NCBI GenBank assembly: GCA_021827605.1
Contig: JAKAVF010000017.1
Span: 1 to 35,224 of the forward strand
Source: Microcaldota archaeon
Lineage (GTDB): Archaea > Micrarchaeota > Micrarchaeia > Micrarchaeales > Micrarchaeaceae
DNA length: 35,224 bases
Reading direction: 5' to 3'
Part shown: positions 1,657-9,228 of the stretch, one piece after another
Numbering within the stretch: position 1 is the first letter of the stretch
How the letters are laid out: the number at the start of each line of letters is the position of its first letter
Notes under the pieces: generated by a model
Told to the model about the DNA's origin: nothing
The model's database searches: none
Seen by the model: the letters and a program-made list of their open reading frames with translations, nothing else
Program-made: the position numbers and the translations under genes

Positions 1657-2118
1657 ATGGCAGCGCGCGTCTACGAATGCGGCCAATCAGAAGTGCAGAA
1701 GCTTAAGAAGATGCTGAACTACGATCCCTACCTCGACCCGAATCTCATCCCCAGGCTGCCTGATGTCGATGAAAAGCAGAGAGCCAAGATGAGCCCGGAG
1801 GAGAGGACGAAGCTCGAGGAGCTCGAGAAGAAGGCGAGCTCGGAATCCAAGAAGCTGCGCGAGGACAAGATGATGAATGTTATCTTCGCGAGGCAGGACT
1901 GCGACCTCAGGGAAGCAAGGTCTATGGGGATAGAGAACGACAATTACTACCTGCTAGTAAGGGCGACCGACGAGTTCCTAGACCTTGCGGAAGAGAAGTT
2001 CAAGATCGAGTTCACTACAGTAAAGAGGGCTCCTCAGGAGATAGAGCAGAAGATGATAAAGATAAAGGAAGATGAGGAGAACGCGGCGAACCAGGGCTTC
2101 GGTTCGATATTCGGGTGA
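1657..2118 (+). CDS. Unknown charged protein, co-transcribed with S8e
   Basis: I do not recognise this 153-residue protein. It starts one base after the S8e stop and ends five bases before the carbamoyltransferase start, so it sits inside a tight operon. The middle (about residues 45-75) is very rich in Glu, Lys and Ser and probably helical or coiled. A more globular part follows (about 80-135, with NVIFARQDCDLREARSMG and YYLLVRATDEFLDLAEEKF). The C-terminus is a Lys/Glu helix ending in GFGSIFG, which looks like a short docking tail. There are no membrane segments and no cysteine motif. Its position suggests a translation-related or housekeeping role, but that is inference from context only. 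Confidence 0.75.
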   Translation: MAARVYECGQSEVQKLKKMLNYDPYLDPNLIPRLPDVDEKQRAKMSPEERTKLEELEKKASSESKKLREDKMMNVIFARQDCDLREARSMGIENDNYYLLVRATDEFLDLAEEKFKIEFTTVKRAPQEIEQKMIKIKEDEENAANQGFGSIFG

Positions 2119-2122
2119 GAAA

Positions 2123-3019
2123 GTGAATTTCCTCTCAGCAAATGATATCTCAAAAGAGGAAATAAACAGGATATTTGACATAGCCGACACATTCGTAGCG
2201 GGGAAGCAGACAGCATCCATCAAGGAGCACAGTGTCCTTGCTATGTACTTTGAGAAGCCCTCGACGAGGACGAGGCTCTCATTTGAGGTGGGGATGACGC
2301 AGCTCGGCGGCCGTGCAATCTTCATCGATTCGAGAACAACACAGCTCTCCAGGGGAGAGACCTACGCTGACACAGCGAGAATGCTCAGCAATTATTGCGA
2401 CTTCATAGCAGCTAGGTTGAACAAGCATACCGACCTTATCGAGATGGCGAACAACTCCGACGTCCCTGTCATAAACGCGCTTACAGACCTAGAGCATCCC
2501 ACACAGGGGCTTGCAGACCTCTACACAATCCGTTCTCATGTCAAGTCGTTGAAGGATACGCGAATCGCATTCATGGGCGATCTGCAGAACAACACGTTCA
2601 ATTCCCTTATGGTGCTCGCTGCAAAGGAAGGAGCAGAGATATTCCTAGTTGGACCGCAGGGATACCTTCCGAAGGCGAAGTATGTGACAAAGGTCAAGGA
2701 GTACTCGAAGGTAGTTGCCACGAACAGCCTTGAGGATGGGCTTGAAAACGCAGACGTGGTTTATACCGACACATTCATAAGCATGGGGCAGGAGGGAGAG
2801 GCTGAGAAAAGGAGGAAGATGTTCGCCCCATACCAGCTGAACCAGAAGGCTCTGGACATGGCAGGGAAGAAGGCGATAGTAATGCACCCTCTTCCGGCCC
2901 ATAGAGGAGAGGAGATAACGAGCGACGTGCTTGACGGATCGAGAAGCGTCGCGATAGAGCAGGCGAGGAACAAGCTGCTCCTCAACAAAGCTCTTGTCCT
3001 ATACCTGTCGCAGCACTAA
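2123..3019 (+). CDS. argF: Ornithine carbamoyltransferase-like enzyme
   Basis: The 298-residue protein has the carbamoyl-phosphate site STRTR (47-51), HPTQ (125-128), an OTC-type NN in GDLQNN (152-157), and the ornithine-loop motif SMG (220-222). The order and the pattern DVVYTDTFISMGQE, then PAHRGEE, match ornithine carbamoyltransferase, which makes citrulline from ornithine and carbamoyl phosphate. However, the usual HCLP is HPLP here (255-258), as in aspartate carbamoyltransferases, so substrate specificity is uncertain. I chose the GTG at 2123 because the protein then begins MNFLSANDIS, like the family, with GGTGA just upstream. An upstream in-frame ATG at 2072 lies inside the preceding gene. 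No other arginine or pyrimidine gene is nearby, so it may act in arginine synthesis or a catabolic carbamoyl-phosphate pathway. Confidence 0.8.
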   Translation: MNFLSANDISKEEINRIFDIADTFVAGKQTASIKEHSVLAMYFEKPSTRTRLSFEVGMTQLGGRAIFIDSRTTQLSRGETYADTARMLSNYCDFIAARLNKHTDLIEMANNSDVPVINALTDLEHPTQGLADLYTIRSHVKSLKDTRIAFMGDLQNNTFNSLMVLAAKEGAEIFLVGPQGYLPKAKYVTKVKEYSKVVATNSLEDGLENADVVYTDTFISMGQEGEAEKRRKMFAPYQLNQKALDMAGKKAIVMHPLPAHRGEEITSDVLDGSRSVAIEQARNKLLLNKALVLYLSQH

Positions 3020-3050
3020 GAATAAATATCAGAACAAGTGAAGGGTTTCC

Positions 3051-4001
3051 ATGGCATCGGCTACTTTGACTTTGGATGGATCCAGTGGCTTCAACGAAAG
3101 ACCGCAAAGGAAGCCGCCGGAGCCTTACAGGAGCAACTGGGATGGCACCTATACGAATCTTGAAGGGAAAACTGTTTTCTTCCTAAATGAGAGTGTTTGG
3201 TCTGTAGACAAAAAGAAACCTACCTCCAAAAGCTTTATAGGGGATACAGGAAGGAAAAGAGCGCGACTAAGGAGAGGGGAGCGGGAGCGGATAGCGAGCG
3301 TACAGTTAACGCTGGAAGAATCCCAGTGCAAATCCTGCATCGGTATACTGCGGAATTTATTGCCTTACGGGGAATACGATGGAAAAGTGCACTTCAGCAT
3401 AGGCACGGGGCAGGTAAAAGATCCTACTTGCGGCCATATTCTCCGCAAAGAACGCAAACGTAATTCGTTTGGGTCATTAGGAAATTCATACGAAGCAGTA
3501 GCAGTTAAAAGGCAGGAAGAAAGGGATGGGGTGCTCGATTTTGACCTTGGCAGGCTATTGTACATGAATGACGAAAGCGCCTCAAATCATCATCGCAGGA
3601 TTGAGAATGCGCTGGAAAAGATGATTGCCTCTCTTGCGCCGCAGACCTATAGGCATGCAGATACAGGATTTGGCTTACAAAGCTATTTTAGAAGCGACCT
3701 CGTTGGCCTGTCTAATCTATTGAAGAGATTGTCCGAAAGAAATTCAGCTGATGCGATGGTATCGGTACTTGACTTATCCAGGGAGATAAGAGAGGGAATA
3801 GCAGGGGGAGGCGTAGCCTTCACCCACAGCGGCATGGTGCGCTATATGTCGCTCCTGATTTCTGATGGGCTCGTGGAAGAGCGCGATGATGGGAAAGCTT
3901 ACCACCTGACCGTCGGGTTCTTCAGGTTCAATGAACTGCTCACCAAGCTAGAGAAGCTGCAATCCGACTGGGACTACAGGTTCAGGATGCGCATGGACTA
4001 G
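3051..4001 (+). CDS. Unknown protein with Cys motif and C-terminal winged-helix-like end
   Basis: This 316-residue protein is not recognised. The N-terminal third is basic and polar. A CKSC pair (about residue 93) followed by a TCGH (about residue 126) could bind a metal such as zinc. The last 70 residues (from about 245) contain an Ile/Gly-rich stretch and then MSLLISDGLVEERDDGKAY, which resembles the recognition helix and wing of a winged-helix DNA-binding domain. No membrane helices are seen. It follows the carbamoyltransferase by 31 bases on the same strand. It could be a DNA-binding regulator, but that is inference from shape only. Confidence 0.65.
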   Translation: MASATLTLDGSSGFNERPQRKPPEPYRSNWDGTYTNLEGKTVFFLNESVWSVDKKKPTSKSFIGDTGRKRARLRRGERERIASVQLTLEESQCKSCIGILRNLLPYGEYDGKVHFSIGTGQVKDPTCGHILRKERKRNSFGSLGNSYEAVAVKRQEERDGVLDFDLGRLLYMNDESASNHHRRIENALEKMIASLAPQTYRHADTGFGLQSYFRSDLVGLSNLLKRLSERNSADAMVSVLDLSREIREGIAGGGVAFTHSGMVRYMSLLISDGLVEERDDGKAYHLTVGFFRFNELLTKLEKLQSDWDYRFRMRMD

Positions 4002-4061
4002 CCTTTCCTGCAAGCCAGCACCAAGGGTTAGCTTAAAATACGCTTCTTCATAGATTTATCT

Positions 4062-5027
4062 ATGAAGGCTGTTTATTCCATTGAAGAGCAGAAAGACATG
4101 CTCTGGTGGCTCGAGAACAGGCACGAGATGCCAACTAAGTACATGTACTTCGGGATTGGCTCCAAGAGATGGATTGCGATAGCCCACAGGAGGATGACTG
4201 AAAGCGCAGCACTTGGAATCCATATGCTTGAGCGCGTGCTGATAACACAAAAAATCAACACAATTATTGACTCGCTTTCTGCATACGGTTACAAAAACTA
4301 CAATATCATTGACTTTGGATGCGGAGATGGCTCTCCTACATATCCTATTTTTCAATACCTCAGGAAAAATAAACCCTCTGCGAAACTGAAATACAACCCC
4401 ATCGATATAAGCGTCGACATGCTGGCAACAGCATCAAAGAACGTCAAAGGCGCTTTCGGCGTTGCCGGAGAAAGGAACAAATGGGATCTGGATATTGGGA
4501 ACTTCTCGCAGATAACAAAGAAATTGAACAAGCCGAACTTTGGCAACCTCTATCTCTTCCTGGGCGCTACAATAGGCAACATGCCGAGCATAAGACAGGA
4601 TCTGATAAACTTCAGGGAGTCTATGCAGCGCGATGATTACTTCCTTATCGGTGCAGAGCTCTTGAAAGAATCGGACATAGGTACAATAATGAAGGAGTTC
4701 TATAACGTTGGAGAAGTATTCGACATAGAAATGACATCTTTTGAATATCTTGGTGCAAGAAGAAGCCATTTTGCCTTTAGGACTATATTCAATAGGGCTA
4801 AATCGCAGATAGAGGGATACATAATCCCAGACAGGGACATAAAAATAAAACTCGCAGGCAAAGAGGTAATCCTTGAGAAAGACCAGCAGATAATGTCCTA
4901 TAGGAGCGTAAGGTTCACAACAGAGAGATTGACCGGCCTTTTGGAAAAGGCAGGATTGAGACTGGAGATGTTCACTACTTCTAGGGACAACAAATACGCC
5001 CTCTCCCTTACACAGCCCATCATCTAA
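4062..5027 (+). CDS. EgtD-like (histidine-specific methyltransferase family) SAM methyltransferase, copy 1
   Basis: The 321-residue protein has a class I SAM-binding motif, DFGCGDG, at 84-90. An IDIS acidic loop follows at 114-117. LFLGATIGN at 165-173 resembles the FLGSTIGN block characteristic of the EgtD family (Pfam histidine-specific methyltransferase). The C-terminus (RSVRFTTERLTGLLEKAGL, then a CALS-like strand) fits the substrate-binding part of that family. EgtD itself trimethylates histidine on the way to ergothioneine. The partner enzymes of that pathway (EgtB and others) are not in this window, so the substrate is unknown. The ATG directly follows TTATCT with a TATA-like TTAAAATA about 30 bases upstream, suggesting a nearly leaderless transcript. 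A paralogous gene follows about 100 bases downstream. Confidence 0.75.
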   Translation: MKAVYSIEEQKDMLWWLENRHEMPTKYMYFGIGSKRWIAIAHRRMTESAALGIHMLERVLITQKINTIIDSLSAYGYKNYNIIDFGCGDGSPTYPIFQYLRKNKPSAKLKYNPIDISVDMLATASKNVKGAFGVAGERNKWDLDIGNFSQITKKLNKPNFGNLYLFLGATIGNMPSIRQDLINFRESMQRDDYFLIGAELLKESDIGTIMKEFYNVGEVFDIEMTSFEYLGARRSHFAFRTIFNRAKSQIEGYIIPDRDIKIKLAGKEVILEKDQQIMSYRSVRFTTERLTGLLEKAGLRLEMFTTSRDNKYALSLTQPII

Positions 5028-5102
5028 AGTTGAATTTACCTTCTGCGCCTCGACTTGCGGTCAAAATAGGAGCTATTTATACCTATCTTTTTTAGAAGCG
5101 AA

Positions 5103-5115
5103 AGCTTTAAATATC
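5103..5115 (+). promoter_or_regulatory. TATA box upstream of second EgtD-like gene
   Basis: AGCTTTAAATATC gives the second methyltransferase its own likely promoter. Its distance would put the transcript start at about 5130-5137. That is compatible with initiation at the internal ATG codons at 5152/5155 rather than the ATG at 5128. Confidence 0.45.
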
Positions 5116-5127
5116 AAATGAAATGCG

Positions 5128-6120
5128 ATGACTATTAAGAAAGATGAGCAAATGATGCGTTCAACAACAGCCACGGAAACAATAAGGAGCGAGCTTCTCC
5201 CACTTCTCCGGGAGCAGAAGCCGGAACTGCACGGAAATCAAAAGGTCTGGCACCTTGCCCGCTCCGACACCTGGTACCAGCACCCATCTCAGGTTAACCT
5301 GTACAACGCTATAACGAGCAATCACGATTATGCATCTGATATGTGCAGAGCAGAAGAGAGATGTTTTTATGATAACAAGAGCGACCTGAGAGGTCTCTTC
5401 CCACGAAGATTCTACCTAGTGGACCTTGGTCCAGGTGATGGAAAACATACATTCAAGCTGATGCGTGCGGCAGGTCTAACGCAAAGAATCGGCCATTACT
5501 ACCCTGTTGACATAAGTGAGATAGAGCTCAAAAAATCCTCCGCAACCGCCTCCCGTGAAGGAATTCCAAACGTGACTGCCATAAAAGCAAACTTCATTGA
5601 GGAACTAAGCAAGGTAACTGACTCGGTCTCTCTGAGCAGGCCCGCTCTCTACAATATTGGTGCAAGTTTCTCTAATTTCGACAGGGAATTCATACTGGCG
5701 CTTCTGAGCGATGGCATTCCCGCCGGCAATTATGCGTACCTCTCCGCGCAGCTGCTTACCGGGGATGCGGCGAAGATAGAGATCCAATATGCACAGGAAG
5801 AGTCGACACAGATAGTCATAGAAGTTATGAAGTCATTCGGGTTTGAAAAATCGGATATCGTGCCAGAAGTCGAGTACAACTGGCCTACTAGAGAGATATG
5901 GGTATCCGTAGTCATCAATAGAATGCCTGCGGAAGTCGCAAAGCTAAACGGGGAGTTCAAAAATATCGAAGAAGGCAACAGGATCGTAATAATGAAATCT
6001 TATAAGCCGAAACTCTTTGAATTCGAGCAGCTTGCCGGAAGATACTTCAATGGGATGGTGTTCACGGACAAAGCGGCGACATACGCAGGCTTCATAGGCC
6101 AGCCGCGCAAGAGTCCCTAA
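5128..6120 (+). CDS. EgtD-like SAM methyltransferase, copy 2 (diverged paralogue)
   Basis: This 330-residue protein has the same layout as its upstream neighbour: VDLGPGDG at 98-105, YYPVDIS at 124-130, and LYNIGASFSNFD at 174-185 in the position of the FLGSTIGN block. Sequence similarity to copy 1 is confined to these motifs, so the duplication is old or the two were acquired separately. The GPGDG form of motif I and the altered LYNIGASFSN block suggest a changed substrate pocket. The start is uncertain: ATG at 5128 is listed, but ATG at 5152 or 5155 fits the upstream TATA box better and would remove eight or nine residues. Two neighbouring members could act in sequence on one small molecule or one protein N-terminus; this is inference. 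Confidence 0.72.
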   Translation: MTIKKDEQMMRSTTATETIRSELLPLLREQKPELHGNQKVWHLARSDTWYQHPSQVNLYNAITSNHDYASDMCRAEERCFYDNKSDLRGLFPRRFYLVDLGPGDGKHTFKLMRAAGLTQRIGHYYPVDISEIELKKSSATASREGIPNVTAIKANFIEELSKVTDSVSLSRPALYNIGASFSNFDREFILALLSDGIPAGNYAYLSAQLLTGDAAKIEIQYAQEESTQIVIEVMKSFGFEKSDIVPEVEYNWPTREIWVSVVINRMPAEVAKLNGEFKNIEEGNRIVIMKSYKPKLFEFEQLAGRYFNGMVFTDKAATYAGFIGQPRKSP

Positions 6121-6130
6121 TTTTTATAAG
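6121..6130 (+). promoter_or_regulatory. TATA box for the membrane-anchored protein gene
   Basis: TTTTTATAAG lies directly after the upstream stop codon. The predicted transcript start is near 6152, followed by a GGAGAT ribosome-binding sequence at 6155-6160 and the ATG at 6162. Confidence 0.55.
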
Positions 6131-6161
6131 TTTCCGTAGATAATAATATGAGACGGAGATC

Positions 6162-6794
6162 ATGGACCTCATACTAAAGGTAGGAGTACTCATAGTTGTG
6201 CTTGTTGTCGTTATAAGCGTAGTCTGGCTCCTCGCATCGCACCAGAAATCTGGTCAGCTCACGCAATCGCAGGCGGAGCAGCTTGTGCTCAGCGACGTGA
6301 AGCAATCGAACCCGAACGCCACCATTTCCGTTGTATCAGTAACGAACTCTCCGCTGGAGGCGAACAGCTGGCAGATTACGCTTTCCGTTACCTATAATGG
6401 GTCAAGGCCGTGCCCGACGCTTCTTATCGAGGGATTCGACTATCCTGCGACTGGGCTTGTACCCAGCACGGACAACCTATACACCAAAGGCTGCGTGATC
6501 TACGGTCTCTCGAATGCGCCCTCCTATGTGATAAGCTCGCCGGAGATAGCGATAGTCAGGTCTTACACCGCGAACTCCGCGACGATAACGCACTATGTGA
6601 GCACATATGGGTACAACAATACAATTGTGCATGCGGCATTCTACTCTTCGCTCGGGGCCAATGCGACGCCTCTCGGGAAGCAGTTCTCGAACGTGTGGCT
6701 TGTCAACTACAGTGCTGCCGGAACTTCATATAATCTCCTTGCTGTGCTTGCGCAGAGCGGTCAGATCCAGGGAACATACAACTCAAGCAAGTAA
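6162..6794 (+). CDS. Membrane-anchored extracytoplasmic protein of unknown function
   Basis: The 210-residue product starts with one strong hydrophobic helix (about residues 4-25, ILKVGVLIVVLVVVISVVW), then a polar, Ser/Thr/Asn-rich domain. That domain has several N-x-S/T sequons (for example NGS, NNT, NAT, NYS and NSS) and two cysteines (CPTLL and KGCVIY) that could form a disulfide. Such a layout is typical of archaeal pseudo-secreted proteins anchored by an uncleaved N-terminal helix and N-glycosylated outside. The early segment QLTQSQAEQLVLSDVKQ resembles the first helix of PepSY-like domains, but the match is weak. It sits between the EgtD-like pair and ftsZ, and its own promoter is visible. 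Confidence 0.72.
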   Translation: MDLILKVGVLIVVLVVVISVVWLLASHQKSGQLTQSQAEQLVLSDVKQSNPNATISVVSVTNSPLEANSWQITLSVTYNGSRPCPTLLIEGFDYPATGLVPSTDNLYTKGCVIYGLSNAPSYVISSPEIAIVRSYTANSATITHYVSTYGYNNTIVHAAFYSSLGANATPLGKQFSNVWLVNYSAAGTSYNLLAVLAQSGQIQGTYNSSK

Positions 6795-6925
6795 AACTTT
6801 CGGAAAAAGTTTTATCAAAAGTGAACTCTTGAAAAAGTTTCAACGAAATCGGTTTTTCAAAAAACGGGTGCCGATTTTTGCAGAAAATCTGCAAAAAAAC
6901 GGAAAAATAGCGCTTTTACTGCGCT
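6793..6925 (+). repeat. Cluster of inverted and direct repeats upstream of ftsZ
   Basis: The 298-base gap before the first ftsZ opens with a dense series of hairpins. Arms are AAAACTT/AAGTTTT (6793-6799, 6807-6813), AAATCGG/CCGATTT (6846-6852, 6871-6877), a perfect 10-bp pair TTTTTGCAGA/TCTGCAAAAA with a 3-base loop (6875-6884, 6888-6897), and AGCGC/GCGCT (6909-6913, 6921-6925). Direct repeats are GAAAAAGTTT (6803 and 6831) and TGCGCTCCA (6920 and 6978). The first hairpin overlaps the upstream stop and may end transcription. The rest could be RNA structure or a protein-binding region. Beyond about 6990 only promoter-like sequence is seen. Confidence 0.5.
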
Positions 6926-7039
6926 CCAAAACGTTTCTTTTTGTAAATTTCATGTAATTTTACTTCTTTTCTTGTAGTGCGCTCCATGAAGTTACCTAAT
7001 TTTACCATAACTTCTCAATCATCGAGATATTACATAAGA

Positions 7040-7067
7040 TTTAAAAGCCTTATCAGATATTATAAAC
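7040..7067 (+). promoter_or_regulatory. ftsZ promoter (two TATA-like boxes)
   Basis: TTTAAAAG at 7040-7047 and ATATTATAAAC at 7057-7067 precede the ATG at 7093. The second box would start transcription at about 7085-7090, giving an almost leaderless mRNA. The first gives a leader of about 25 nt. Confidence 0.5.
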
Positions 7068-7092
7068 TCGGCGATAAGTCAACGGCGATCTA

Positions 7093-8154
7093 ATGAGCGA
7101 CCTAGTAAACGAGATTTTGGGACAGCCTAGCAGCAATGCTAGCGCAAGTGAGGATGAGTTTTCCTCAACACAGATAAAGATAGTGACTGCGGGGTTTGGT
7201 GGTGCTGGAAACAACATTGTCAACAGGCTTTTGAAGGCTGGCGTAAAGGGCACGACCTTCGTTGCTGTAAACACTGATGCTCAACACTTCAAGATAATCG
7301 ATGACCGGATTAAGAAAGTGCTGATTGGAAGGACAATCACGCGCGGTCTTGGTGCAGGCGGCGATCCAAAGATTGGAGAGAAGGCTGCCGAAGTTGACAG
7401 GCAGCTGATAGAAGACGCTTTCAACGGCTCGCAGCTCGTATTCCTGTGTGCGGGAATGGGCGGCGGAACAGGAACGGGCTCAATCAAGGTCGCGGCGCAG
7501 ATCGCAAAGGAGCAGGGAGCGATCGTGGTCGCAATGGTAACATATCCGTTCGATCTTGAGAGGATAAGGAAGGCAAAGGCAGAGGAAGGAATCCAGCAGC
7601 TCAGGAAGTTCTGCGACAGCGTGATCATCCTGGACAACAACAGGCTGGTAAAGCTTGTGCCTAACCTGCCGATGAATGATGCATTCGCGCTTGCGGACGA
7701 GGTCCTTGCAAAGGCAATAGGCGGACTTGTCTGGACAATAACTCAGCCAAGCCTGATCAACATAGACTTCGCCGATGTCCGCTCCATACTCGGAGGCGGC
7801 CAAGTCGGATTCATAGCAGTGGGAACAGGAAAGGGGACGGACAAGGTAAACCTTGCTGCGGAAGGAGTCCTCAAGAACAAGCTGCTTGACGTTGACATGG
7901 AAGGCGCGACAGGAGCACTCATACACATATCTGGAGGAGCAAGCCTGACAATCGGCGATGCGATAAAGGCCGGAGAGATAATAACCGACCAGATGGACCC
8001 ACGCGCAAACGTGAAGTGGGGCGCAAGGCTGATTCCAGGATACGATGACCAGATAGAGATCGTGGGAATCATAACAGGAGTCAAGGGCGCAAGCATAGTC
8101 GGAAGATTGGAGGAAGTGAAGCAGTCCAACTTCGGCGGCATAGAGATGATCTAA
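7093..8154 (+). CDS. ftsZ: Cell division protein FtsZ, first paralogue
   Basis: This 353-residue tubulin-family GTPase polymerises into the division ring. Visible hallmarks are the first nucleotide loop GFGGAGNN (34-41), VNTDAQHF (59-66), the tubulin signature GGGTGTG (123-129), and the T7 catalytic loop NIDFADVR (223-230) that completes the GTPase site of the neighbouring subunit. A polar N-terminal tail of about 27 residues precedes the GTPase domain. The C-terminus ends soon after the second domain (SNFGGIEMI), without a long linker. In archaea FtsZ is attached to the membrane by SepF, which is encoded at 17491-17868 here. A second ftsZ follows 66 bases downstream, with a hairpin terminator in the gap. 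Confidence 0.96.
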   Translation: MSDLVNEILGQPSSNASASEDEFSSTQIKIVTAGFGGAGNNIVNRLLKAGVKGTTFVAVNTDAQHFKIIDDRIKKVLIGRTITRGLGAGGDPKIGEKAAEVDRQLIEDAFNGSQLVFLCAGMGGGTGTGSIKVAAQIAKEQGAIVVAMVTYPFDLERIRKAKAEEGIQQLRKFCDSVIILDNNRLVKLVPNLPMNDAFALADEVLAKAIGGLVWTITQPSLINIDFADVRSILGGGQVGFIAVGTGKGTDKVNLAAEGVLKNKLLDVDMEGATGALIHISGGASLTIGDAIKAGEIITDQMDPRANVKWGARLIPGYDDQIEIVGIITGVKGASIVGRLEEVKQSNFGGIEMI

Positions 8155-8220: not shown

Positions 8221-9228
8221 ATGTCTGACGACGAATTCACGGCGAAACTAGGAATAATTGGACTCGGAGGAGCTGGAAGCAACCTGATTAACAGGATTTA
8301 CAGCTCGGGAATAAAGAGCGCAGATACTATTGCCGCGAACACGGACGCAAAGCACCTCAACATGATCAAAGCGCACAAGAAGATCCTGATGGGCAAGGAC
8401 ATAACCCACGGGCTTGGCGCAGGAGGATTCCCGGAGATGGGGCTCAAGTGCGCGGAAGCCAGCAGGAACGAGATAGTCAATGCGATATCCGGATACGACC
8501 TGCTGTTCATAGCTGCAGGAATGGGCGGCGGAACCGGAGGAGGAAGCGCACCGATTGTTGCCCAGATGGCAAGGGAGCAGGGCTCTCTGGTAGTCGCATT
8601 CGTAACATATCCATTTTCCCTTGAAAGGAGCAGGAGGCAGAAGGCGGACTGGGGAATCCAGCAGCTTTCAAAGAACGCTGATACAACGATCATAGTGCAG
8701 AACGACAAGCTTCTCTCATTTGCGCCTAACCTTGCGATGGAGAAGGCATTCGAGCTGGTAGACAGCATAGCAATGAATGCGATAAAAGGCATCGCCGACA
8801 CGATCCAGCTTCCAAGCCTGATAAACCTGGACTTTGCGGACGTGAGGAGCGTTATGAGGGACGCAGGCACTGCGATGATAAACATAGGAAGCGGCTATGG
8901 TCCCGACAAGGTCTCGAAGGCGATATCGTCTACGAACAACCATCCATTGCTTGATGTTGATTCCCAGGGTGGCAAGAGCGCGCTCGTCCATGTGGCAGGA
9001 GGTACTTCTCTTACGATAGAAGAGGCGACAAAGGTAGGAGAGGGAGTGACTGCAGACTTGGACGACCGGGCCAACGTGATCTTCGGATCCAGGCTCGCAC
9101 CAGAACTGAACGACCAGATAAGAGTGATGTCTATAGTAACGGGAGTCACGCCAAAGTTCGGCACATTCTCGGCAAGAGACCTTGACATGGCAAACACCTC
9201 TGTAGACACGATAGAGAATATGATCTGA
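8221..9228 (+). CDS. ftsZ: Cell division protein FtsZ, second paralogue
   Basis: This 335-residue FtsZ lacks the N-terminal tail of its neighbour and begins at the GTPase fold. GLGGAGSN is at 14-21, ANTDAKHL at 39-46, the tubulin signature is GGGTGGG at 102-108, and the T7 loop NLDFADVR is at 202-209. The sixth signature residue is Gly, where FtsZ and tubulin normally have Thr, Ser or Ala. Otherwise the GTP-binding and catalytic residues look intact. Many archaea carry FtsZ1 and FtsZ2 with different jobs (ring assembly and constriction); which copy corresponds to which cannot be settled by eye. A GGTTTG sequence directly precedes the ATG, and a long T-rich stretch follows the stop. Confidence 0.95.
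   Translation: MSDDEFTAKLGIIGLGGAGSNLINRIYSSGIKSADTIAANTDAKHLNMIKAHKKILMGKDITHGLGAGGFPEMGLKCAEASRNEIVNAISGYDLLFIAAGMGGGTGGGSAPIVAQMAREQGSLVVAFVTYPFSLERSRRQKADWGIQQLSKNADTTIIVQNDKLLSFAPNLAMEKAFELVDSIAMNAIKGIADTIQLPSLINLDFADVRSVMRDAGTAMINIGSGYGPDKVSKAISSTNNHPLLDVDSQGGKSALVHVAGGTSLTIEEATKVGEGVTADLDDRANVIFGSRLAPELNDQIRVMSIVTGVTPKFGTFSARDLDMANTSVDTIENMI

What the first reader, a model, noticed from the sequence alone, without database searches (positions are those of the whole stretch)
4062..6120. Tandem, highly diverged EgtD-like methyltransferases in an archaeon
Two adjacent genes both carry the class I motif, the PVDIS/IDIS loop and a FLGSTIGN-like block characteristic of the histidine-specific methyltransferase family, yet share little else. 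EgtD makes trimethylhistidine for ergothioneine, but no other ergothioneine gene is in the window. A pair with different pockets suggests two sequential methylations or a novel betaine-type product.
Basis: partly seen in the sequence, partly recalled or inferred. Interest (0 to 1): 0.6.

Follow-up and report, generated by a model that had tools for sequence, protein, structure and literature searches.

The report
Paired EgtD-like methyltransferases, probably not histidine-specific
A tiny symbiotic archaeon carries, side by side, two distant cousins of the enzyme that methylates histidine; both have lost that enzyme's histidine-recognising residues, and relatives keep the two genes together at different chromosomal places, so they probably methylate some other amino acid-like molecule that nobody has identified.

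Summary
Window 4062-5027 (A, 321 aa) and 5128-6120 (B, 330 aa) both match Pfam PF10017 best, above cut-off (103.6 and 48.4 bits, cut-off 23), and share little direct sequence. B's 'FLGSTIGN' block is only a weak version (NIGASFSNF). Neither is EgtD: both score far under the EgtD equivalog cut-off (87.6 and 40.8 against 290.9), form their own clades, and lack EgtD's Glu282 and (less surely aligned) Tyr56, while Tyr39, Asn166, a Tyr near 206 and Ser284 are mostly kept. No enzyme for any of the three known ergothioneine sulfur-transfer routes was found in the genome. The pair is real beyond this genome: A and B lie together in three same-genus genomes with different neighbours. Here it sits with one orphan gene (3051-4001) between genes adjacent in four relatives; the nearest relative keeps a 42-codon scrap of B at that exact spot. 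Relatives fuse these domains to Lrp/AsnC-like or winged-helix DNA-binding domains, and B-like sequence to another methyltransferase. Best reading: a patchy, relocating cassette of two SAM-dependent N-methyltransferases acting on non-histidine amino acid-type substrates. Substrate, product, and whether the two act in sequence are not shown. New variant of a known kind.

The parts
4062..5027 (+). Gene A: PF10017 methyltransferase, 321 aa; SAM motif IDFGCGDGSP, NPIDIS loop, FLGATIGN block; EgtD residues Tyr39, Asn166, Ser284 kept as Y29, N173, S282; Glu282 replaced by Y280, Met252 by G252, Tyr56 by about G52
   Evidence: fold match to EgtD; codon-position pattern
5128..6120 (+). Gene B: second, distinct PF10017 methyltransferase, 330 aa as listed (probable true start 5152); SAM motif VDLGPGDGKH, YPVDIS loop, weak NIGASFSNF block; Y50, N183, Y221, S291 kept, Glu282 replaced by M289
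   Evidence: fold match to EgtD
3051..4001 (+). Orphan gene g316 (316 aa), third gene of the inserted segment; its C-terminal part looks like a winged helix by eye only (best Pfam F-93_WHD, E 0.2, not significant); no homologue in 100 relatives
4033..4040 (+). TATA-like box (TTAAAATA) 29 nt before the A start; possible archaeal promoter, leaderless transcript (inferred)
   Evidence: pattern match only
5106..5113 (+). TATA-like box (TTTAAATA) before B, suggesting B has its own promoter (inferred)
   Evidence: pattern match only
2072..3019 (+). Ornithine carbamoyltransferase gene, left flank of the insertion (conserved backbone)
6162..6794 (+). g210, conserved protein without a family, right flank of the insertion; lies directly after the carbamoyltransferase in four relatives
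7093..8154 (+). FtsZ-family gene, backbone anchor used for the synteny comparison

Best explanation
A and B are two anciently separated members of the EgtD superfamily (PF10017) in a Micrarchaeota-type DPANN archaeon. Each most likely binds SAM with its Rossmann domain and transfers methyl groups to the amino group of a small amino acid-type molecule held by the retained Asn166 / Tyr206 / Ser284-type residues. The side-chain pocket has been rebuilt (Glu282 to aromatic or small in A, hydrophobic or small in B; Met252 to small in A), so the substrate is probably not histidine and differs between A and B. Shown: family membership, clade structure, loss of the histidine-pocket residues at alignment level, absence of detectable ergothioneine sulfur-transfer enzymes, repeated physical linkage, presence and later deletion of a B gene at the OTC-g210 site. 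Inferred: catalytic activity, N-methylation, amino acid substrates. Open: substrate identity, number of methyl groups, and whether A and B act in sequence.
For: Best family for both is PF10017; EgtD is the top PDB relative of both profiles and fills the first 15 Foldseek ranks for both models. A and B are each a 100%-supported group apart from bacterial EgtD. Pocket: Tyr39, Asn166 and Ser284 equivalents invariant in 19 A-like sequences and mostly kept in 7 B sequences; Glu282 and the position aligned to Tyr56 lost in all 26, while the three annotated EgtD records and two further plasmid PF10017 proteins keep Glu282 and Tyr56; roles of Tyr56, Tyr206, Ser284, Asn166 from PMC8593015. The engineered EgtD M252V,E282A structure has tryptophan bound (title of 4pip), showing that these two positions bear on the side chain accepted. 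No EgtB/OvoA, EanB or MES type genes. Linkage: A before B, same strand, in G000, G008, G013 with different neighbours; G000 insertion and G008 B remnant. Codon positions 2 versus 3: 85-88% versus 41-45% identity for A, 61-69% versus 30-33% for B, so both are held as proteins.
Against: No substrate or activity is shown. The A model is weak exactly at the substrate lid (pLDDT under 50 at 23-52 and 206-215) and the B model superposes poorly on EgtD overall (TM 0.45, rmsd 15 A), so pocket claims rest on sequence alignment. The Tyr206 register in A is uncertain by one residue, and the Tyr56 alignment is loose. Two B proteins (G083, G215) lack the Asn166 equivalent. Fusions to DNA-binding domains leave room for a regulatory role.
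Confidence: 0.6

Rival explanations
1. A and B act in sequence on one molecule (for example B acts on A's product), making a new betaine-type compound.
For: A and B adjacent or near, same order and strand, in three genomes with different surroundings; a third methyltransferase is fused to B-like sequence in this genome, lies two genes from an A in G005, and its gene is concentrated in A/B carriers (3 of 4 carriers, hypergeometric p about 0.01).
Against: A occurs without detected B in at least five draft genomes and B without A in three; co-occurrence inside the genus is not significant on its own (Fisher p 0.06); B seems to have its own promoter; no transporter or other pathway gene is shared by all loci.
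Confidence: 0.25
2. One or both are regulators or modifiers rather than metabolic enzymes: the methyltransferase domain senses an amino acid or SAM and is coupled to DNA-binding domains.
For: In G213 a B-type domain follows Lrp/AsnC-like regions (AsnC-family structure 8q90, E 4.9e-4; AsnC Pfam models only weak); in G079 an A-like protein starts with a winged helix (HTH_24 24 bits, cut-off 21.9).
Against: A and B of the window carry no such domain; most members stand alone; SAM-binding motif and clamp residues are conserved as in an enzyme. The G213 fusion is cut by a contig end.
Confidence: 0.12
3. Both are true histidine methyltransferases, that is diverged EgtD, feeding an ergothioneine-like route.
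For: EgtD is the nearest solved relative; part of the amino acid clamp is kept.
Against: Scores far below the EgtD equivalog cut-off; Glu282 lost in every A and B; separate clades; no sulfur-transfer enzyme of any of the three known routes detected.
Confidence: 0.05
4. B is a decaying pseudogene-like copy with no function.
For: B evolves fast (39-46% identity between same-genus genomes) and a B remnant is visible in G008.
Against: Open frame in seven genomes, second codon position 61-69% conserved against 30-33% at the third, clamp residues Tyr39 and Tyr206 invariant.
Confidence: 0.03

Closest known systems
EgtD, L-histidine N-alpha-methyltransferase (TIGR03438; Mycobacterium smegmatis EgtD, PDB 4pim, 4uy7)
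   Same: Same Pfam family PF10017; Asn166, Ser284, Tyr39 and (within one residue in A) Tyr206 equivalents; top fold and profile match
   Different: About 16-20% identity in the fold alignments, far below the equivalog cut-off; Glu282 and probably Tyr56 gone; no ergothioneine sulfur-transfer genes detected; own clades
Engineered EgtD M252V,E282A with tryptophan bound (PDB 4pip)
   Same: A replaces the same two residues naturally (252 to Gly/Ala/Val/Cys, 282 to Tyr/Phe/Ala/Val in strict A members), so its side-chain site is altered in the same places
   Different: Natural, about 20% identical, the position aligned to Tyr56 also changed; tryptophan activity of A is untested
EasF family methyltransferase (TIGR03439)
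   Same: PF10017-type enzyme; weak profile match of both (55.0 and 24.1 bits against cut-off 205.55)
   Different: Well below cut-off; no partner pathway looked for or seen
Lrp/AsnC-type regulators (fused in a relative only)
   Same: Found N-terminal to a B-type domain in G213
   Different: Absent from the window proteins

Membership tests
PF10017 (Methyltransf_33 superfamily) | Whole-protein score above the curated cut-off (23 bits) | tested here: met
   A 103.6 bits, B 48.4 bits
PF10017 (Methyltransf_33 superfamily) | EgtD-type fold | tested here: met
   EgtD holds Foldseek ranks 1-15 for both models; the B model superposes poorly overall and the A lid is low confidence
EgtD (TIGR03438 equivalog) | Score above 290.9 bits | tested here: not met
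   A 87.6, B 40.8
EgtD | Glu282 of the substrate pocket | tested here: not met
   Y280 in A, M289 in B; no Glu there in 19 A-like and 7 B sequences
EgtD | Tyr56 carboxylate contact | tested here: not met
   Gly/Asp/Ser/Ala/Asn/Thr in A-like, Ala/Met/Asn/Lys in B; local alignment is loose
EgtD | Asn166 and Ser284 | tested here: met
   Invariant in A; Asn in 5 of 7 and Ser in 6 of 7 B, both present in the window's B
EgtD | Co-occurrence with EgtB, EanB or MES type sulfur transfer enzyme | tested here: not met
   PF03781, PF00384, PF00581 absent from G000; genome 92% complete; EanB and MES tested through these Pfam families, not their own models
EgtD | Trimethylates histidine | not testable with these tools
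   needs purified protein
EasF (TIGR03439) | Score above 205.55 bits | tested here: not met
   A 55.0, B 24.1
Conserved A-B gene pair | Adjacent or near in more than one genome | tested here: met
   G000, G008, G013, same order and strand

The most novel reading that the evidence does not exclude
A relocating cassette in host-dependent DPANN archaea encodes two or three cooperating SAM-dependent methyltransferases that turn a host-derived amino acid into a previously unknown N-methylated (betaine-type) metabolite, with sister copies wired to amino acid-sensing Lrp-type regulators.
Probability: 0.12. Interest if true: 0.75.

Novelty: new variant of a known kind. Interest (0 to 1): 0.45.

Why it matters
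PF10017 enzymes are usually read as histidine methyltransferases. Two clades in genome-reduced archaea that lack Glu282 and detectable ergothioneine genes would warn against that annotation and point to N-methylated amino acid-type metabolites in organisms thought to make almost nothing themselves. The retained clamp with a changed side-chain site makes the substrate question testable with a simple amino acid panel.

Tried and rejected
Viral contigs: no relative of A or B. Plasmids: only EgtD-type proteins at 22-26% identity for A, nothing for B. Ergothioneine route: no EgtB, EanB or MES type family in the genome. Gene c4 between A and B in G008 and G013 looked like a pathway partner but has no Pfam family, looks membrane-anchored by eye, and is absent from G000. 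The orphan 3051-4001 has no homologue in 100 relatives and no significant family. The 105 bases of B at the start of G008:C26 equal the end of its intact B and were taken as an assembly overlap. A winged helix at the start of the G299 proteins was suspected from their length but not found. The sigma-70 promoter scan was at chance level and is not suited to archaea. Literature searches found nothing on PF10017 in Micrarchaeota; two Micrarchaeota culture papers do not mention ergothioneine, histidine or betaine in the text searched.

Full report
Observation. Both genes exist at the stated coordinates. PF10017 is the best Pfam match of both, A at E 1.3e-29 and B at E 8.6e-13, each above the curated cut-off. 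A search of the whole genome with the family returns these two places only. The class I SAM motif and the PIDIS/PVDIS loop are present in both. The FLGSTIGN block is clear in A (FLGATIGN) and only hinted at in B (NIGASFSNF). Direct comparison aligns just 54 residues, but profile comparison aligns 252 to 275 columns at 99.7 to 99.8% probability, so the two are remote homologues.

Origin. The genome is 971 kb in 52 contigs, 92% complete. The window is therefore from a Micrarchaeota-type DPANN archaeon. A third record, JAMCZN010000038.1 (G001), bears the name Candidatus Marsarchaeota although it falls in the same genus here; names of binned genomes are not reliable.

Not EgtD. The NCBI EgtD equivalog model gives 87.6 and 40.8 bits against a cut-off of 290.9. 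In a maximum-likelihood tree of 35 proteins, A (9 rows), B (7 rows) and the plasmid-borne bacterial EgtD-type set (5 rows) are each one side of a branch with 100% bootstrap; the tree is unrooted and B_G215 is a long branch. Solved EgtD structures are the best hits of both profiles, and EgtD fills ranks 1 to 15 of the Foldseek search for both models.

Pocket. In M. tuberculosis EgtD the substrate carboxylate is held by Tyr56, Tyr206 and Ser284, the amino group by Asn166, and Tyr39 packs on the alpha carbon (PMC8593015). Alignments put Tyr39, Asn166 and Ser284 on invariant residues of 19 A-like proteins (Y29, N173, S282). All 19 have a Tyr in the Tyr206 column or in the next one (F213/Y214 in the window's A). 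In B, Y50, N183, Y221 and S291 correspond; Asn is replaced in G083 and G215 and Ser in G215. The position of Glu282 is Tyr, Phe, Ala, Val, Ser, Gly or Leu in A-like and Met, Leu, Ile, Gly or Ser in B. Met252 is Gly, Ala, Val or Cys in the nine strict A members. Tyr56 is replaced in all, though that stretch aligns loosely. The engineered EgtD M252V,E282A was crystallised with tryptophan (entry title 4pip), so these two positions bear on the side chain accepted. The best inference is retained amino acid binding with changed side-chain choice. The AlphaFold models cannot settle this: the A lid has pLDDT under 50, and the B model has TM 0.45 to EgtD.

No ergothioneine route. The three known ways to add sulfur to trimethylhistidine use EgtB, EanB or the metallopterin enzyme MES (PMC9516567). 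FGE-sulfatase was absent from all 16 genomes tested, and molybdopterin oxidoreductase and rhodanese from all 9 tested, G000 included in each. The control genomes rang as expected.

Conservation of the pair. Of 100 genomes searched, 14 have a PF10017 match; the phylum search with the two profiles is. In G000, G008 and G013, A precedes B on the same strand, with 0.1, 0.8 and 1.6 kb between them, and the neighbouring genes differ. In G001 A and B are on separate contigs; A ends 101 bases from its contig end. A without detected B is seen in G002, G005, G040, G079 and G099, and B without A in G007, G083 and G215. These are draft genomes, so single absences are weak. Co-occurrence inside the genus is not significant by itself (Fisher p 0.06); the physical linkage is the stronger evidence.

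Insertion and loss. The order S8e, g153, carbamoyltransferase (OTC), g210, FtsZ1, FtsZ2 is found in several relatives. OTC lies directly next to g210 in G001, G007, G012 and G040. In G000 the segment g316-A-B lies between OTC and g210. In G008, the closest relative by this locus (FtsZ1 98% identical), the same spot holds the last 42 codons of a B gene, 71% identical to the window's B and followed by nearly identical flanking DNA, whereas G008's intact B on another contig is only 39% identical. A B gene therefore stood at this site before the two lineages split and was largely deleted in G008, which also has a different A-B pair elsewhere. The wider OTC-FtsZ interval also carries extra DNA in G002, G011 and G013. 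No transposase or repeat was sought around the cassette, so how it moves is unknown.

Fusions. G213 has AsnC/Lrp-like sequence (8q90, E 4.9e-4) ahead of a B-type domain. G079 has an HTH_24 winged helix ahead of an A-like domain. In this genome contig C5 ends inside a B-like C-terminus that is fused to a class I methyltransferase; a homologue of that methyltransferase lies two genes from A in G005 and on the B contig in G001, and it occurs in 4 of 101 genomes, 3 of them A/B carriers. G083 has a homocysteine S-methyltransferase gene 18 bases after B. These associations fit methyl and amino acid metabolism but do not name a substrate.

Verdict. The finding is real, ordinary in fold, and unusual in pocket and arrangement. 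I file both genes as PF10017 members, not as EgtD. The most likely role is N-methylation of amino acid-type small molecules other than histidine (0.6). A sequential pathway is possible (0.25, not exclusive of the main reading).

Noticed in passing
L101:6023-6952 (G000:C5, minus strand, contig end): A B-like C-terminal module fused to a second class I methyltransferase, cut by the contig end; a third PF10017-related gene of this genome that the Pfam search missed.
   Followed up: partly
L112:5045-6253 (G213:C22): AsnC/Lrp-like regulator sequence fused to the N-terminus of a B-type methyltransferase domain, cut by the contig end.
   Followed up: partly
L029:7947-9167 (G079:C28): Winged-helix (HTH_24/MarR-like) domain fused to an A-like PF10017 domain.
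   Followed up: partly
L061:406-2301, L063:355-2280, L092:466-2331 (G199, G198, G186): Radical SAM domain fused to a PF10017 domain (621-641 aa) in other families of the same class; with G157 one supported clade in the tree.
   Followed up: partly
L120 about 3192-3317 (G008:C1): 42-codon remnant of a B gene between the carbamoyltransferase and g210, a clear gene-loss scar.
   Followed up: yes
L035:10379-11428 (G083:C37): Homocysteine S-methyltransferase gene 18 bases downstream of a B gene.
   Followed up: no
window 3019-7093 and L121, L122, L131: The interval between the carbamoyltransferase and FtsZ1 genes carries different extra DNA in several relatives and looks like an insertion hotspot.
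   Followed up: partly
window 7093-8154 and 8221-9228; G000 C18, C19, C44: Five FtsZ-family matches in one 0.97 Mb genome, two of them tandem in the window.
   Followed up: no
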